Positions 4,809-31,250 of a stretch of DNA of 31,404 bases are shown piece after piece. Location of the stretch: the IMG/VR virus record IMGVR_UViG_3300017744_000083, positions 1 to 31,404 of that record. One strand, given 5' to 3'. The position numbers were made by a program, and so were the translations under genes. Each line of letters starts with the position of its first letter. Within the stretch, counting starts at the first letter, position 1. The DNA is from a virus. Below the pieces are notes generated by a model. The model made no database searches and was not told where the DNA came from. It was given only the letters and a program-made list of their open reading frames with translations.

Positions 4809-5004
4809 TATCGGTAAAGATTATAAAAATGACGCAATGCATTACTCTGTAGGCCAAGAGGTCTACGGAGGGCACGTCATTTGTGATATATTAGAATCTA
4901 CAACTAAATACAGTGTGTATATTAAAAAAAACAATGAGGTTTTGCCTTGGAAAGATTTTAATAAAAACATGGCTGTTTCTGTAGAATATAATCTTCAATA
5001 TTAA
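4786..5004 (+). CDS. Conserved-type 72-residue phage protein of unknown function
   Basis: I choose ATG 4786 over the upstream ATG at 4759. The protein from 4786 begins MKLIRKISIGKDYKNDAMHY, a natural N terminus that I remember as the beginning of a recurrent short protein in marine phage contigs; the nine extra upstream residues look unrelated and would lengthen the overlap with the preceding gene. The gene overlaps its predecessor by 23 bases and its stop overlaps the next start as TAATG (5002-5006), so translational coupling is likely. The fold appears to be a small beta protein (VGQEVYGGHVICDIL, then KYSVYIKKNNEVLPWKDF). Function unknown. Confidence 0.75.
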   Translation: MKLIRKISIGKDYKNDAMHYSVGQEVYGGHVICDILESTTKYSVYIKKNNEVLPWKDFNKNMAVSVEYNLQY

Positions 5005-5600
5005 TGCGTAGTATATTTGATTTTGTAATACAACCAAAACAATCAAGATATAGTAACGTTAAAAAAGTTGGTGATAAAGAATTAATTTTAAATACTGAAA
5101 TATTTAATCACCAATATGTTAGTCGAGAAGCTACAGTGTTACAAACGCCAATAAAGTTTGATACGCCAATAAGTATAGGTGATAGTGTAATTGTTCACCA
5201 TAATATATTTAGAAGATGGCATAATGTAAGAGGTGAAGAAAAAAACAGCAAAAGTTACTTGTCTGAAAACAAATACTTATGTCAACTGGATCAACTGTAT
5301 CTTTATAAGAAAAATAATAAATGGATACCACAAAGTGGATTTTGCTTTGTAAAACCCATTGAAAATAATGATACATTTAATATTGATAAAGAGAAACCAT
5401 TAGTAGGTGTTTTAAAGTACGCTGGTGATGATTTAAACGCGTTAGGATTAAACGAAAATGATTTAGTAGGGTTTTCGCCTAATAGCGAGTTTGAGTTTGT
5501 TATAGAAGGCGAGAGGCTTTATAGGGTGTTAACTAATTCAATTACAATTAAATATGAATACCAAGGACAAGAAAAAGAGTATAATCCAAGCTGGGTATAG
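5004..5600 (+). CDS. GroES-fold-like protein, possible phage co-chaperonin
   Basis: The 198-residue protein reads like a GroES/Cpn10 beta-barrel with an insert. The N-terminal part has REATVLQTP and then ISIGDSVIVHHNIFRRW, where GroES has its value-added strand and G-D-V-V/I motif. After a central loop (residues about 70-105) the C-terminal half has GVLKYAGDDLNALGLNENDLV and FVIEGERLYRVLTNSITIKY, matching the GroES pattern of GD-V-F, E-I-G-E-Y and L-S-ILA. The obvious role would be to cap or replace the host GroES during capsid folding, analogous to T4 gp31. The family call comes from pattern recognition only. The gene overlaps both neighbours, just upstream of the packaging genes. Confidence 0.6.
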   Translation: MRSIFDFVIQPKQSRYSNVKKVGDKELILNTEIFNHQYVSREATVLQTPIKFDTPISIGDSVIVHHNIFRRWHNVRGEEKNSKSYLSENKYLCQLDQLYLYKKNNKWIPQSGFCFVKPIENNDTFNIDKEKPLVGVLKYAGDDLNALGLNENDLVGFSPNSEFEFVIEGERLYRVLTNSITIKYEYQGQEKEYNPSWV

Positions 5601-24155: not shown

Positions 24156-27100
24156 ATGGAGAATTTAATAAGAAATCTTTATGCTAAATATGCTCCAGAT
24201 AAAGATGTCGAAGAGCAAATTAAATACGTACAACAAAAATACGGATCTAACGTTGGGTTGTTTGTAAATGAATTTTATAAGAAATATGCGTCTGGTAAGC
24301 TAAATCAAGACACGGTAAATCACATTAACGAAAATTATCTACAGCAAAGCACTTCAGCAGAAAACATAAATAAAAACGTTGGCGGCGCGCTCGGAGTCGT
24401 TCAAAGTATGGCTGGTGCTCTTGGTGAAGGTGGCGCTACTTTAGCCGGTGGTTTTGCTGACTTGACAGTTGGTTTAGCATTAAATACTAAAATGTTTTGG
24501 GAAAAAAACTTTGGCGACGGTAATGTTAGTGAAGATGACAAAGCAAGGTTTAGAAAAGAAGCTTATCTTGAAAATAAAGACAACATACTATTAAACCCTG
24601 ATTTCTGGAAAGGCACGGAAGATTACTTTAGAAGCATACAAAAAGAATACGAGGATCCTACAATATCGCAAGCTTTTGAAAAAGCTAGTAGTTTAGGTGA
24701 TTATGCTGAATTAGGTGCAAGAACTGTCGAGGGTATCTTTAAATCAGCACCGTCATTAATAGCCGCGTATTCAGGTCCAGGCGCTCTAGCTGTTTACGGA
24801 ACTAGCTTAGCTGGTGATAAATATTTAGAAGAGTTTGATAAAGATCCTACACAGGCAAACTCTAGACTACTTGCTAGCGCTATAGGTACATCTGCAATTG
24901 AAGTTGGTTTTGAGTTCGCGACGAGACGCTTAATGATAGGAGCTGGTTTAGTGGGAAAGCAAGGAAACAAGGCAGCTGCAGAAGCTTTAATAAAAGGTGG
25001 AGTGCAAAGTATGTTAACGCGTTTTGGAAAGCCTTTAGCTCAAGAAGGCGCGTCAGAAGCTGCAACTGAGCTAACAAGTTTAATATATGATGCCGCTATA
25101 TTAAATCCAAATGGCGTCTCGGGTATAGATTGGTCTAAAGAAAAATATAGAATATTTGACGCGGGTATTGTTGGTTCTGCTATGGGTGGTGGAATAGCAA
25201 CATTAGGAGGTGTTAATAATCGTAATGAAAGAAGAAGATTAGAACAAATATTAATGCCAGATGAAATTAAACAACAAATAGAAAAGTCTGGCGATAGAAT
25301 ATCTAAGTTAGTTATAGAGTCAGATGGCGTAGATGCTGACACAAAATCTTTAATCGAAGATCAAATAAATAAAGAAAATAGAAACATAGTTAGATTAAAA
25401 AATGAAGTTTCTACAAAACTCGGCAACATGAACGAGACTGAGTTAAGAACATACGCAAAAAATAAAAACGAAATACTTAAAACTCAAAATCAACTAAAAA
25501 AGCTTGATAATAATTCTGAAATATATAAGCCTATAAAAGCAAAATACGATCTATTAATAAAACAAAATTCCACGTTATATCAAAATGCTACAAAAAGAAG
25601 ATTACAAGAGGATATTACTTCTGTTAAAAAAATAGCTAAAAAACAAGGTATTAAAAAAATTAACGTATTAGATGACAATGGTTTTCAGAAAGCATTTAAA
25701 AATACAGAAGAAGGCAAAAAGCTAGACGATAAGCAATTAGCATTACAAGCAGCAGGAGTTTCAGGTTTTTATGATCCTTCAACTAATAGTATTTTTATAA
25801 ACAAAAAAGCCGCAGAAAATTTTGGTCAAGTAACCGTTGCTAGTCATGAGTTATTACACCCTGTTTTAAATAAAGTCTTTGGCTCAACCGAAAGTCAAGC
25901 TGCTAAAGTTGCTGAGTTTAAAAATATATTATCTAGCAAACAAACACGGTTAATGGATCAAGAGATGATTGACCGTGGTTATACTAAAAAAGAAGAAGCA
26001 ACAGAATACTTTAACGTGTTTTTAGACGCGGTTGCTGATAAAAATTCAGAAATAGCTTTTGAGAAAAACTTATACACACGTATAGGCGAGTTTTTAAAAT
26101 CAGTATTTAGAGAATACAACATAAACAATATGGATTTTGGCGATGCTAATGGTGTTTTTAACTTTTTAAAAGCGTACCAAGAAGGCGTTAAGCAAGGTGA
26201 ATTTACACAAGAAGTATCTGATATAATAGGTGATTTAAGTGACTTAAGAGACTTAGATGCTACTGGAAGACAAGATTCAAAAAAAGCATCTGATCAAGTA
26301 CAGCAAATATATGAACAACAAGGTTCAGCTGGCGCCTTTGACATCATAGAACTTTTTAAGCCTATTACAAATAAAATAGTAGAGAAACGTAGAGGAGCGC
26401 CTAACTTTGATAAAACATTATTAACGGAGGAAGTTGAAACAGGTGAGCGTGGTATAATAGATTTAATAAACGAATATAATCCAGATTCTGGCGTACCATT
26501 AGCAGCATATATAAATAAGTTTTTACCAGCTAGAGCAATTGAAGCATCAAAAAGAATTTTAGGTGAAGAATTTACTACAGATATAACGGAAGCTAGAGGA
26601 GTTGCTGCAGAAGAAGTTGCTACACCAGAAGTACAAACAAAGCCAAAAGCTAGAAAAATAAATCCTATAGATTTAGCTAGAGACGAAAATATAAAAGAAC
26701 AATATATAAAAGAAGTTTCAGATAAAATCAAAAACATAGACATTAATAAAGCTACGTTTAAAAACTTAAAAGATTTAGCATCAGAAATAACAGCTAAAAT
26801 ATTTAATGTTTCTTCTAAAAAAATAACAGATCCTACAGCTAACTTAACAAAGCAAGAAAAAGAAAATGCTTTGAAGTTTATAAGAGCTAACGCATTAGAT
26901 TTAATTGCTTTACTACCTGAAGGAGCAATAACAGAGGCGGCATCTGAAAAATTAATAGGCACATCAACTGGTATACCAAAAAGTTTATTAAATAAATTTT
27001 ACACTAAACAAGATAGAATAACTAAAGGAGCTGGTTTATCACCTTATACAAAAAATACAGACATAAATAAAAAAGAGTTTTTAGAAGCGTTTGGTATAGT

Positions 27101-30100
27101 TGAAGGCAAAAAGTCTACAGACTTTGGACCAAGAACACCTGAAGCACAAGCGGTAAAAGCCATGATGTCATTGTATGGTAAGTTAGCTACTAACAGTATA
27201 GTGCGTGAACAATTAACAAATCAAGAAGTTGATCAAAGTATTATACGTAATTTAGAAGCTGGTAAATCTAGTGTTCAATTTAGCAAAAACATAAAGGCTT
27301 TTATGGAAAACAACGACCTTGATGGTTATGTTAACGTTATGAAAGACCCTGATTACTATATAAATGACATGGTTCCTCTAATTATAGAGGTTTTAGGTGA
27401 TAGAATACTAGGTGTTAATTTTGATAATAGACGTGGAGAATTAAATGCTGAATTATGGACTGGTTTATTTGGTAAGCACCCAGATAGAAAACGTATTATA
27501 AGTGAGCTACAAAAATTAAGGATTGAACCTGATAACAACCCACCAACAGGTAACCCAAATTTTAAAACAACATTTTTTAAAGACGGAAGATTTGATCAAA
27601 GTAAAATAAAAGACGTACAAAAATTTAACGAACAAGTTGGTAAGACTTTTGACGAAATGTGGATGAGAATTTTTGACGCTGTATCGCGAGATACAAAATA
27701 TGTTTTACCAATAATGACATATATGCAAGCTTCGACTAGCTCTAAAACACATCCTATGAGAAATGGAGCTCAAGCAACGCACATGGATTTAAAATCAAGT
27801 AATATTACTTTAGAGCACGCGTACCCACAGTCGCAAGCTGCTAGAGATTTAATGCAAGCTATTATAGATCATAGAAACGACAAGTCAGCATTTATAAAGA
27901 AGTTTAACAGGATAAAAGAAGAATACGTTTTACATGGAATTGATATAACTGAAGATGCTAAAATAAACAAAGCAAAAGATTTAGTAACAGATAAGAATCA
28001 CAAAAGCTTTGGTAAAGTTACCTCGTTGAAAGATCATAATGGCAAGGACTTTGATTACATGACAGATACCCACTTGCGTAGATATGTAAAAGCGGGTGTA
28101 AATCTTGACTTGCTAACTTCGTTAAAAACAGGCAAGCCTTTAACAGAAGAACTTAGCATAGATGGTTATGGGAACCCTATATCTAAAGAGGCTGCAGAAA
28201 TAAGAAAAGAAGCTGCTAGGTTAAATGATGAATTATTTGACAATTTAATTAAAGGCAAGCCAGTAGAGCAACAAGCATCTGACTTAAAACAAATAGATAA
28301 AGCTTTACAGTTTTCAAGAACACCAAAGCCAGAAAAAGGAATAAGCATATTTGATTTTGATCAAACACTAGCTAATACTAAAGAAAAAATTAAAGTTACT
28401 ATGCCGGGTGAAAGTGTAGTTTACAATGCTAGTCCTAAAACTTTTGATCAATTAGGTAAAAGAACTGGGTTAATATTTTTAGCTACAGACATAAAAGAAG
28501 CTCAAGAATATGCTAAAAGTAATCGGGGTAAAGTTAGAGAGATTTCAATAAACGACTCTAGCTTAGCTACTGAAGATCAAGTTTTAGATGCAATGAAAAC
28601 CCTAAACATTGATACTAGCGAAGGATTGTTATATGAAATGATCGATTCTAGGTTTAAAGATTTTTATATTGGAGATGCAAACTTAAACAAACTTAAAAAA
28701 GCTTTAAAACAAAGAGGTTTTGGTGGCTTTAAATATAACGATGGATCTCAATTGTCTAGCAAAGGAACTGAAAGTGTAGCTATTATAGACAAGTCTATAA
28801 TAAAACAACCAACTAAAATTGATGCTGCTGAGTTTGCAAGGAAAGCAGAGCAACTTGAAGCTAACGGTGCTAAGTTTGATTTTACTGAGTTTGATAAAGT
28901 AAAAGGCGCAACTAAAGGTCCTTTCTTTGAGCTAGCACAAAAAATAAAAGGTAAGTTTGGTAATAAAGATATATTTATATTAACAGCAAGACCACAAAAT
29001 GCAGCGCCAGCTATACAAAAGTTTTTAAAAGGTGTAGGTTTAGATATACGGCTTGAAAATATAACTGGGTTAGAAGATGGAACACCACAGGCTAAAGCGC
29101 AGTTTGTAACTGAAAAAGTTGCTGAGGGTTATAATAACTTTTTCTTTGGTGATGACGCTTACAAAAATGTTAAGGCAGTTCAAGATGTTTTAGATGTTGC
29201 AGATGTTAAATCTGATGTTCAGCAAGCTAAAATACAATTCAGTAAATCACTAGACTCTGAGTTTAATAAAATTATAGAAGATAATAAAGGTATACCAGAA
29301 AACGCAGAATTTTCTGAGGCGGCTGCAAAAGTACGTGGGGCCCAGTCTGATAAATTCTGGTCAAGATTATTTGTTCCACCTTCAGCTGAAGATTTTAAAG
29401 GTTTATTGTACATGCTTATAGGCAAAGGCAAAAAAGGTGATGGTCAAATGGCATTTCTTGAAAAGGCATTGATAAAACCATTTGCAAGGGCATATAGAGA
29501 TATGAACGCTGCTAAAGAAAAAATATCAAATCAATATAAACTTCTTACATCAGAGTTTAAAGATATTAAGAAAAAATTATTAACAGCCACAGATTATAAT
29601 AATTTTACTTTTGATCAAGCTGTAAGAGTTTATTTGATGAGTGAAAATGGTATTGATATACCTGGCATATCAAAAAGAGATACAGAAGCGTTAACAAAAA
29701 TAGTTAAAAGCGATCAGCGATTAAAGGATTTTGCAGGTAAATTATCTACAGTAACAGGTTTAGAAGAAGGTTATGTAACGCCTAATGATGTTAATTGGCT
29801 AGCATCAACTATAGAAATGGATATTAAGTCTATTAATAATGATATAAGAAGATCTGAGTTTTTAAACGAATGGATAGAAAACAAAAAAGTAATATTCTCT
29901 GAAAAGAACTTAAATAAGCTCGAAGCTTTATACGGTACATCTTACAGAAATGCATTAGAAGATATACTATATAGGATGGAGACTGGAAGTAATAGGCAAA
30001 AAGGCAGTAGTAAGCTTGTTAATCAATTTACAGACTGGATAAATAACGCAACTGGTAATATAATGTTTTTAAACGTTAGAAGCTCAGTATTGCAGGTTTT

Positions 30101-31250
30101 ATCATTTACAAACTTTATAAACTGGAGCGATAATAACCCAATAAAATACGCGGCAGCTGTAGCAAACTTTCCACAGTTTACAAAAGATTTTGCTATGATA
30201 TGGAATTCAGACTTTCTAAAGCAAAGAAGATCAGGCTTGCAAACAGATGTTAGCGCTTCTGAAATAATGAACCAAGCGGCTAATTCAAAAAACAAAATTG
30301 GCGCAATGATAAGCTACATACTTGGTAAAGGTTACTTACCAACACAAATGGGTGATAGTTTCGCTATATGTTTAGGTGGTGCAGGCTTTTATAGAAATAG
30401 ATTAAAAAAGTATTTAAAACAGGGTTTAAGTCAAGCAGAAGCAGAAAACAAAGCTTTTCAAGATTTTGCAGAAACATCTGAAGATGCTCAGCAGTCAGCA
30501 AGACCAGATAAAATATCAGAACAACAAGCTGGTCCACTTGGTAGATTTATATTAGCTTTTCAAAATACACCTATGCAGTACACGCGTATGATAAAGAAAG
30601 CTGGGTTAGATTTAGCGAATGGTAGAGGAGATGCTAAAACTAACATATCAAAAATACTTTATTACGGCGCTATGCAAAACTTTATATTCTCAGCTTTACA
30701 AAATGCGTTATTTGCCTTAGCGTTTGATGAAGAAGAAGAAGAAAAAACACAACAGAGATATTCAAGAATAGCAAACAATATGTCTGATACAATATTGAGA
30801 GGTACTGGTATATACGGGGCAGCGGCATCTACGCTAAAAAATATAGCTTTGCAGTTTATAAGACAAGAACAAAAAGGTCACAGAGCTGATCATGCTTACA
30901 CTGTAATAGAAGGAATAAACTTATCCCCACCTATTGGTAGTAAAATAAGAAAATTGTACAGTGCTACACAATCTATTAAGTTTAATAGAGATGAAGTAGC
31001 AGAAATGGGATTTCATATAGATAATCCTGCTTATGATGCTATAGCTAATACAACTTCAGCAATAACAAATATACCGCTAGATAGAGCTATAAGGATTACT
31101 GATAACGCAAGGGCAGCACTAGATAAAAATAATCAAGCTTGGCAAAGAATAGCTTTAGTTTTAGGTTGGAACACATGGGATTTAGGTATAGAGCAAAGTA
31201 AAACTAAAAAAACTAGAAAGAAAAAAAATAACAAAAGAGTGTTATTTTAG
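24156..31250 (+). CDS. Giant multidomain polyvalent/ejection protein (HExxH, HAD with ART-like insert)
   Basis: A 2364-residue protein, last of the ejection-type cassette. Visible parts: hydrophobic Gly/Ala segments near 78-115, 195-220 and 335-352; a charged coiled coil about 365-480; a zinc-peptidase-like motif HELLH (564-568) with candidate third ligand in EEATEYF (613-619); a sigma-factor-like segment (about 764-802); an EHAYPQS element (H1221); a HAD phosphatase with DxDxT (D1400, D1402, T1404), T1610, K1647 and D1666-D1667; an ADP-ribosyltransferase-like insert (about 1421-1553) between HAD motifs I and II; and a long helical C-terminal region (about 1700-2364) ending in basic KTKKTRKKKNNKR. 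The motif QFS(K/R) occurs at 1041, 1385 and 1694. Likely ejected into the host with the DNA, but activity is untested. Confidence 0.72.
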   Translation: MENLIRNLYAKYAPDKDVEEQIKYVQQKYGSNVGLFVNEFYKKYASGKLNQDTVNHINENYLQQSTSAENINKNVGGALGVVQSMAGALGEGGATLAGGFADLTVGLALNTKMFWEKNFGDGNVSEDDKARFRKEAYLENKDNILLNPDFWKGTEDYFRSIQKEYEDPTISQAFEKASSLGDYAELGARTVEGIFKSAPSLIAAYSGPGALAVYGTSLAGDKYLEEFDKDPTQANSRLLASAIGTSAIEVGFEFATRRLMIGAGLVGKQGNKAAAEALIKGGVQSMLTRFGKPLAQEGASEAATELTSLIYDAAILNPNGVSGIDWSKEKYRIFDAGIVGSAMGGGIATLGGVNNRNERRRLEQILMPDEIKQQIEKSGDRISKLVIESDGVDADTKSLIEDQINKENRNIVRLKNEVSTKLGNMNETELRTYAKNKNEILKTQNQLKKLDNNSEIYKPIKAKYDLLIKQNSTLYQNATKRRLQEDITSVKKIAKKQGIKKINVLDDNGFQKAFKNTEEGKKLDDKQLALQAAGVSGFYDPSTNSIFINKKAAENFGQVTVASHELLHPVLNKVFGSTESQAAKVAEFKNILSSKQTRLMDQEMIDRGYTKKEEATEYFNVFLDAVADKNSEIAFEKNLYTRIGEFLKSVFREYNINNMDFGDANGVFNFLKAYQEGVKQGEFTQEVSDIIGDLSDLRDLDATGRQDSKKASDQVQQIYEQQGSAGAFDIIELFKPITNKIVEKRRGAPNFDKTLLTEEVETGERGIIDLINEYNPDSGVPLAAYINKFLPARAIEASKRILGEEFTTDITEARGVAAEEVATPEVQTKPKARKINPIDLARDENIKEQYIKEVSDKIKNIDINKATFKNLKDLASEITAKIFNVSSKKITDPTANLTKQEKENALKFIRANALDLIALLPEGAITEAASEKLIGTSTGIPKSLLNKFYTKQDRITKGAGLSPYTKNTDINKKEFLEAFGIVEGKKSTDFGPRTPEAQAVKAMMSLYGKLATNSIVREQLTNQEVDQSIIRNLEAGKSSVQFSKNIKAFMENNDLDGYVNVMKDPDYYINDMVPLIIEVLGDRILGVNFDNRRGELNAELWTGLFGKHPDRKRIISELQKLRIEPDNNPPTGNPNFKTTFFKDGRFDQSKIKDVQKFNEQVGKTFDEMWMRIFDAVSRDTKYVLPIMTYMQASTSSKTHPMRNGAQATHMDLKSSNITLEHAYPQSQAARDLMQAIIDHRNDKSAFIKKFNRIKEEYVLHGIDITEDAKINKAKDLVTDKNHKSFGKVTSLKDHNGKDFDYMTDTHLRRYVKAGVNLDLLTSLKTGKPLTEELSIDGYGNPISKEAAEIRKEAARLNDELFDNLIKGKPVEQQASDLKQIDKALQFSRTPKPEKGISIFDFDQTLANTKEKIKVTMPGESVVYNASPKTFDQLGKRTGLIFLATDIKEAQEYAKSNRGKVREISINDSSLATEDQVLDAMKTLNIDTSEGLLYEMIDSRFKDFYIGDANLNKLKKALKQRGFGGFKYNDGSQLSSKGTESVAIIDKSIIKQPTKIDAAEFARKAEQLEANGAKFDFTEFDKVKGATKGPFFELAQKIKGKFGNKDIFILTARPQNAAPAIQKFLKGVGLDIRLENITGLEDGTPQAKAQFVTEKVAEGYNNFFFGDDAYKNVKAVQDVLDVADVKSDVQQAKIQFSKSLDSEFNKIIEDNKGIPENAEFSEAAAKVRGAQSDKFWSRLFVPPSAEDFKGLLYMLIGKGKKGDGQMAFLEKALIKPFARAYRDMNAAKEKISNQYKLLTSEFKDIKKKLLTATDYNNFTFDQAVRVYLMSENGIDIPGISKRDTEALTKIVKSDQRLKDFAGKLSTVTGLEEGYVTPNDVNWLASTIEMDIKSINNDIRRSEFLNEWIENKKVIFSEKNLNKLEALYGTSYRNALEDILYRMETGSNRQKGSSKLVNQFTDWINNATGNIMFLNVRSSVLQVLSFTNFINWSDNNPIKYAAAVANFPQFTKDFAMIWNSDFLKQRRSGLQTDVSASEIMNQAANSKNKIGAMISYILGKGYLPTQMGDSFAICLGGAGFYRNRLKKYLKQGLSQAEAENKAFQDFAETSEDAQQSARPDKISEQQAGPLGRFILAFQNTPMQYTRMIKKAGLDLANGRGDAKTNISKILYYGAMQNFIFSALQNALFALAFDEEEEEKTQQRYSRIANNMSDTILRGTGIYGAAASTLKNIALQFIRQEQKGHRADHAYTVIEGINLSPPIGSKIRKLYSATQSIKFNRDEVAEMGFHIDNPAYDAIANTTSAITNIPLDRAIRITDNARAALDKNNQAWQRIALVLGWNTWDLGIEQSKTKKTRKKKNNKRVLF
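25845..26009 (+). other. Zinc-metallopeptidase-like motif region inside the giant protein
   Basis: HELLH at residues 564-568 (codons 25845-25859) sits after a strand SIFINKKAAENFGQVTVAS and is followed 45-50 residues later by EEATEYF (613-619), giving the spacing of two zinc histidines plus a downstream acidic ligand, as in gluzincin-type peptidases. The ligand identity is a guess between E613, E614 and E617. Confidence 0.55.
28341..29190 (+). other. HAD domain interrupted by an ART-like domain
   Basis: HAD motif I is FDFDQTLA (D1400 and D1402), motif II is ILTARP (T1610), motif III is K1647 and motif IV is FFGDDA (D1666-D1667). Between motif I and the continuation AAEFARKAEQL (from about 1557) lies about 130 residues resembling polyvalent-protein ADP-ribosyltransferases: VVYNASP (1421-1427, where the family usually has YHG), LIFLATDIKEAQEYA (1439-1453) and LKQRGFGGF with E1539 in GTESVAIIDKSII. 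The usual His is Asn here. Confidence 0.5.

What the first reader, a model, noticed from the sequence alone, without database searches (positions are those of the whole stretch)
28341..29190. HAD phosphatase with an ADP-ribosyltransferase-like domain inserted in its cap position
The HAD motifs in order (D1400/D1402, T1610, K1647, D1666/D1667) are split by about 130 residues of ART-like sequence (VVYNASP, IFLATDIKEAQEYA, LKQRGFGGF, E1539). The flanks, KVTMPGE and AAEFARKAEQL, would join naturally without the insert; I remember uninterrupted relatives with that junction. A nested ART in a HAD inside a virion-type giant protein is an unusual architecture. H-to-N at 1424 suggests altered or lost ART chemistry. 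Polyvalent proteins of phages are known to carry ART domains among others.
Basis: partly seen in the sequence, partly recalled or inferred. Interest (0 to 1): 0.78.

Follow-up and report, generated by a model that had tools for sequence, protein, structure and literature searches.

The report
Swappable domains nested in phage phosphatase
In a giant virion-type protein of marine phages, a phosphatase domain has a hairpin loop into which whole other protein domains (here a probably inactive ADP-ribosyltransferase) have been inserted and exchanged between phages, which suggests a plug-in site for changing what the injected protein acts on.

Summary
Residues 1394-1690 of the 2364-aa ORF (24156-31250) form one HAD phosphatase domain, split in its flap hairpin (the C1-cap site) by about 135 residues with an ADP-ribosyltransferase (ART) fold. 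The HAD catalytic residues are invariant in 67 relatives. The insert models at pLDDT 90, and most of its best structural matches are ARTs. Nearly all HAD relatives lack the insert.

The larger finding is that this hairpin is a recurrent insertion slot. In related phages it holds the same ART, a second ART lineage with the histidine and tyrosine motifs intact, a DUF6934-like module, a P-loop kinase (AAA_33/zeta), or shorter unknown inserts. Three insert families are 87-92% identical between phages whose flanking HAD is only 51-60% identical. Slot ARTs are not one clade (AU p 5e-7). The inserts therefore move independently of their hosts.

The ART carried here lost its catalytic His (N1424) and Tyr (F1441) but is under purifying selection. 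It is most likely a non-catalytic binding cap on an active phosphatase. Function is inferred, not shown. It is a new variant of polyvalent phage proteins.

The parts
24156..31250 (+). Giant polyvalent-type ORF, 2364 aa, last gene of the virion block
   Evidence: the gene order GroES-TerL-portal-...-giant structural protein matches Flavobacterium phage elemoE_6-9C
25845..25859 (+). HELLH zincin metallopeptidase motif (residues 564-568)
   Evidence: weak DUF6782 metallopeptidase match at 532-568, E 0.07
28311..28319 (+). FSR joint motif (1386-1388) just before the HAD
   Evidence: motif enriched about 6-fold over shuffles in 76 relatives, with peaks around the HAD
28335..28406 (+). HAD domain, N-terminal part (1394-1417): strand 1, motif I DFDQT, first arm of flap hairpin
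28353..28367 (+). HAD motif I, D1400 and D1402
   Evidence: invariant in 67 sequences
28407..28811 (+). Inserted ART-like domain (1418-1552); replaces a 5-7 residue hairpin loop
28425..28427 (+). N1424, position of the catalytic His of H-Y-x ARTs
   Evidence: H in 14 of 23 family members, N/T/A in the window's subclade
28476..28478 (+). F1441, position of the second-motif Tyr
   Evidence: Y in 13, F in 10 of 23
28740..28742 (+). D1529, near-invariant acid of the insert family
   Evidence: D in 22 of 23
28770..28772 (+).
   Evidence: E in 11 of 23, Q in L082
28812..29225 (+). HAD domain, C-terminal part (1553-1690): second hairpin arm, helices, motifs II-IV
28983..28985 (+). HAD motif II T1610
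29094..29096 (+). HAD motif III K1647
29151..29156 (+). HAD motif IV D1666 D1667
29238..29246 (+). FSK joint motif (1695-1697) just after the HAD

Best explanation
The giant protein is a polyvalent virion protein, probably injected with the genome, that carries a small HAD phosphatase. The HAD's flap hairpin (C1-cap site) is a permissive slot that tolerates whole folded domains. In this phage the slot holds an ART-fold domain that lost its catalytic His and Tyr but is still selected for. The insert families spread between phages independently of the HAD, most likely by recombination in the conserved HAD coding sequence on both sides. Most likely action: the HAD core hydrolyses a phosphoester, and the nested domain sits over its mouth as an exchangeable cap or binding module (for the degenerate ART: NAD/ADP-ribose-type ligand, nucleic acid or a host protein) that sets what the phosphatase meets, rather than ADP-ribosylating anything itself. 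Shown: anatomy, ART fold, slot diversity, independent movement, purifying selection. Inferred: virion injection, phosphatase activity, the cap/binding role, the recombination route.
For: HAD catalytic residues are invariant in 67 relatives, and the HAD core matches the T4 Pnkp 3'-phosphatase best (Z 11.2, 2.6 A over 123). The insert alone gives pLDDT 89.9; PDB matches include NatT 7.8, ParT 7.0, MbcT 6.7, KptA 6.0 and tankyrase 5.2, and ART-PolyVal proteins appear in BFVD. Slot contents: empty in 126 of 149; ART-H, DUF6934-like, P-loop kinase and shorter inserts in others. Insert versus HAD-flank identity between carriers: window/L081 87-89 vs 57-60%, L171/L174 92 vs 55%, L142/L208 91 vs 51%; L142 against empty L132 has 97% flank identity. 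The window's HAD groups with empty L001/L002. Slot ARTs as one clade rejected, p-AU 4.9e-7. Insert dN/dS about 0.13 (dN 0.064, dS 0.51 vs L081). His lost across the window's subclade, including members outside any HAD.
Against: No assay exists for either domain. In the AF2 model of the whole nested unit the ART is low confidence, so the placement of the ART over the HAD active site is not modelled. Direction of movement (gain versus loss) rests on parsimony, and some HAD forks are weakly supported. Third catalytic residue unassigned. The kinase-bearing HADs come from two short contigs of one MAG. Virion location rests on synteny and annotation, not proteomics of this phage.
Confidence: 0.6

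Rival explanations
1. The nested ART is an active effector. The HAD hairpin is only a docking scaffold that carries it into the cell, where it ADP-ribosylates a host target with altered active-site residues.
For: A second slot ART lineage (L170-L175, L181) keeps the H and Y motifs. ART is the commonest protein-modifying enzyme of polyvalent proteins, and T4 Alt is a delivered ART (PMC5512222). Insert under purifying selection.
Against: In the window's lineage His is Asn and Tyr is Phe, and the canonical acid position is not conserved. The loss of His is shared by the whole subclade, so it is old and stable.
Confidence: 0.2
2. The slot is a neutral landing pad. Inserted domains have no functional tie to the HAD and are merely tolerated because the hairpin is surface exposed; each acts on its own or is in transit.
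For: The inserts are unrelated in sequence and size, most relatives do without any, and the same ART family also occurs outside the HAD in sister giant proteins.
Against: Two ART lineages entered the same slot, and a P-loop kinase sits in a HAD whose best fold match is the phosphatase of kinase-phosphatase T4 Pnkp, which hints at functional pairing.
Confidence: 0.2
3. Assembly chimera or frame artefact joining unrelated reads.
For: Single metagenomic contig, no read data available.
Against: The same junction recurs in L081, L082 and L084 from separate metagenomes, in frame, with coherent dN/dS.
Confidence: 0.02

Closest known systems
Polyvalent proteins of phages and conjugative elements, with ART domains (PMC5512222)
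   Same: Giant multidomain ORF at the end of the virion gene block, zincin HExxH motif, ART-PolyVal-like domain
   Different: That paper describes domain shuffling along the polypeptide; a text search for 'inserted', 'insertion', 'haloacid' and 'phosphatase' gave no hit. Here the exchange happens inside one domain's hairpin.
HAD superfamily phosphatases with C1 caps; T4 Pnkp 3'-phosphatase domain
   Same: Fold (Z 11.2) and all four catalytic motifs; insertion at the classical C1-cap position
   Different: The caps known to me (own knowledge) are lineage-fixed helical or small alpha/beta units; here the cap position is usually empty and otherwise holds unrelated, mobile, foreign domains.
ART-PolyVal (PF18760) / Tox-ART-HYD2
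   Same: Fold, phage giant-protein context, profile matches in 17 of 23 family members (best E 2.5e-6)
   Different: Window copy scores below Pfam's cut-off, lacks the H and Y of the active site, and is nested in a HAD
Cyanophage A4 pre-ejectosome protein (PDB 9k3a chain B, residues 1420-1602)
   Same: Top structural match of the insert (Z 8.0, 4.0 A over 121), in an ejected virion protein by the entry title
   Different: 8% identity; whether that stretch is annotated as an ART was not checked

Membership tests
HAD superfamily | Motifs I DxDxT, II T, III K, IV DD | tested here: met
   Invariant in 67 sequences
HAD superfamily | HAD Rossmannoid fold | tested here: met
   HAD part mostly pLDDT above 80; T4 Pnkp phosphatase Z 11.2, lipin, NagD and others
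HAD superfamily | Pfam HAD model over curated cut-off | tested here: not met
   HAD_2 15.9 bits against 23.8; only motif I matched; divergent subfamily, so filed as HAD by motifs and fold, not by Pfam family
HAD superfamily | Phosphatase activity | not testable with these tools
   -
ADP-ribosyltransferase superfamily | ART fold | tested here: met
   AF2 pLDDT 89.9; bulk of the best VIA-align matches are ARTs, Z 4-8; Foldseek against PDB alone gave no E <= 0.001; against BFVD 11
ART-PolyVal PF18760 | Pfam score over cut-off 31.2 bits | tested here: not met
   Window 14.4 bits; best family member E 2.5e-6
ART-PolyVal / HYD2 | His in strand 1 | tested here: not met
   N1424; His kept in 14 of 23 relatives
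ART-PolyVal / HYD2 | Tyr in strand 2 | tested here: not met
   F1441; Tyr in 13 of 23
ART-PolyVal / HYD2 | Acid in strand 5 | tested here: inconclusive
   E1539 at the expected place but variable; D1529 near-invariant on the strand before
Polyvalent protein | Several unrelated domains in one polypeptide | tested here: met
   HExxH motif, HAD and ART
Polyvalent protein | Packaged in the virion and delivered | not testable with these tools
   Synteny with an annotated elemo structural protein only
T4 Pnkp-type 3'-phosphatase | Acts on nucleic acid 3' ends | not testable with these tools
   Closest fold only

The most novel reading that the evidence does not exclude
The HAD hairpin is a dedicated exchange slot: a fixed, injected phosphatase core whose cap is swapped between phages for ART, polynucleotide-kinase-like and other domains, retargeting the enzyme. 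The kinase-in-phosphatase form would rebuild a Pnkp-like end-processing enzyme in nested topology, and the degenerate ART would act as a ligand-sensing or host-binding cap.
Probability: 0.3. Interest if true: 0.82.

Novelty: new variant of a known kind. Interest (0 to 1): 0.62.

Why it matters
Modular exchange in phage polyvalent proteins is known as addition and loss of domains in a string. Here whole domains are exchanged inside another enzyme's catalytic domain, at the spot that in other HADs controls substrate access. That makes a testable case of cap-domain evolution caught in progress: the same HAD exists empty and filled with several unrelated caps, in natural pairs whose flanks are up to 97% identical. 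The HAD family is abundant (at least 577 viral contigs) yet had no match in the 50,697 phage records searched.

Tried and rejected
Pfam and PHROGs on the window protein alone were too weak to decide; the unexplained best PHROG is phrog_25401 'DNA binding protein' (E 1e-4 window, 3e-6 L084). AF2 of the whole nested unit gave low confidence for the insert because only four rows covered it, so the insert was modelled alone. Sequence search of PDB found no convincing match for the insert. Plasmids: no match. Comparison with the Roseovarius podovirus vRNAP ART by profile was not significant. Intein or intron: rejected, because the insert is in frame, stays coding under purifying selection, and ends in PTKI-D rather than an intein-like end (sequence). 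E1539 as catalytic residue rejected. One clade of slot ARTs rejected. First genome scan with the nested unit found nothing.

Full report
WHAT WAS CHECKED. The window is a viral contig (31,404 bases) with a late block S74 tail fibre - GroES-like - TerL - portal - virion proteins - giant ORF. Its TerL is 63% identical to a 60.8-kb podovirus from Manatee Spring and 45% to Flavobacterium elemo phages. The order of genes up to a giant 'structural protein' is the same in elemoE_6-9C. The giant proteins share a weak stretch (28.8% over 163 columns, E 1.7e-6) and each has a HExxH motif.

THE HAD. Searching with the C-terminal half alone gave 132 relatives, best 80 kept, and a second query at least 577; none lies in the phage-record collection. 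In most of them the distance from motif I to the DATEFA junction is about 26 residues. A uniform count over 159 loci gives 149 resolved: 126 with 77-79 residues between motifs I and II, and 23 longer. The ART carriers came from directed searches, so 23 of 149 is not a frequency. The catalytic residues are invariant. The AF2 model is confident over most of the HAD and matches the T4 Pnkp 3'-phosphatase first, Z 11.2, followed by other HADs. Standalone 168-193-aa versions occur in Bacteroidetes and Flavobacteriaceae assemblies, so the flanks do form one domain.

THE INSERT. Relatives of the insert were first found in only three contigs. A wider profile gave 24 loci; after removing duplicates, 23 sequences including the window were aligned. 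17 of 23 hit Pfam ART-PolyVal, best 2.5e-6. The window insert modelled with these rows reaches pLDDT 89.9, pTM 0.84. VIA-align gives cyanophage A4 pre-ejectosome 8.0, NatT 7.8, ParT 7.0, MbcT 6.7, KptA 6.0 and tankyrase about 5. Each Z is modest (8.0 or less), but the list is dominated by one superfamily. Foldseek alone was weak against PDB and good against viral models, several named ART-PolyVal.

ACTIVE SITE. Iyer et al. (PMC5512222) describe the polyvalent ARTs as H, Y, D. In this family His is present in 14 of 23 and is N, T or A in nine: the window's group plus L168/L169. The strand-2 Tyr is Phe in the window. The expected acid position is Glu in 11 of 23, while D1529 is kept in 22 of 23. 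Non-slot members L165-L167 share the loss of His, so it does not result from nesting.

A SLOT, NOT A SINGLE EVENT. The same hairpin holds: the window-type ART (window, L081, L082, L084); an ART with intact H and Y (L170-L175, L181); a DUF6934-like module (L077, L142, L208; the DUF6934 match itself is weak, 2.1e-4 in L077 only); a P-loop kinase (L195, L197: AAA_33 E 2.9e-17, Zeta_toxin 1.5e-13; remote match, E 0.0012, to 4gp7, deposited as 'Metallophosphoesterase', which from memory is the kinase domain of a bacterial Pnkp); and unidentified inserts (L012, L013, L025, L026, L028, L036, L074).

MOVEMENT. Window against L081: insert 87-89%, HAD 57-60%, rest 21-53%. Window against empty L002: 65-93% through the rest of the protein. 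L171/L174: 92 against 55%. L142/L208: 91 against 51%; and L142 against empty L132 97% in the HAD C-part. At codon level identity jumps at 1417-1423 and falls at about 1555. In the HAD tree the four window-type carriers need four separate changes and the window lies with empty L001/L002. In the ART tree the slot ARTs do not form one clade, p-AU 4.9e-7.

SELECTION. dN/dS for the insert is about 0.13 (L081), 0.26 (L082) and 0.31 (L084); dS against L081 is 0.51 in the insert and 1.16 in the HAD flank. The domain is functional although its ART chemistry is probably gone.

INTERPRETATION. Anatomy, ART fold and independent movement are shown (my confidence about 0.9). That the filled hairpin modulates the HAD is inference from its place at the C1-cap site and from the recurrence of nucleotide-related domains there (about 0.45). 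That the window's ART is non-catalytic is inference from residue loss (about 0.75). Virion delivery is inference from synteny and from the polyvalent-protein literature.

Noticed in passing
L195:3394-3993 and L197 (contigs binned in an Aliivibrio MAG): A P-loop kinase (AAA_33/zeta, GGPGAGKT) nested in the same HAD hairpin; the HAD's best fold match is the phosphatase half of the T4 kinase-phosphatase.
   Followed up: partly
window residues 1042, 1386, 1695, 2202 (28311-28319, 29238-29246 flank the HAD): [QKR][FY]S[KR] tetrapeptides: 4 in the window against 0.3 expected, 142 against 25 in 76 relatives, with peaks just before and after the HAD; possible linker or processing site of the zincin.
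   Followed up: partly
L077, L142, L208: A second mobile insert (DUF6934-like, phrog_6387) in the HAD slot, 91% identical between L142 and L208 while the HADs are 51% identical.
   Followed up: yes
L168, L169, L177, L182: The ART occurs without a HAD directly upstream of the FSK..PPSADDF region, about where the HAD lies in the window protein.
   Followed up: partly
L038 near position 5000: HAD reading frame breaks right at the slot edge (KITPRRICS*); the downstream half continues in another frame. Indel or assembly error not told apart.
   Followed up: no
insert, window 28407-28811: phrog_25401 'DNA binding protein' matches the middle of the insert (E 1e-4; 3e-6 in L084), unexplained.
   Followed up: no
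L202-L207: Standalone 168-179-aa versions of this HAD in Bacteroidetes and Flavobacteriaceae assemblies.
   Followed up: no
window 5004-5600: GroES-like gene next to TerL, as in elemo phages.
   Followed up: no
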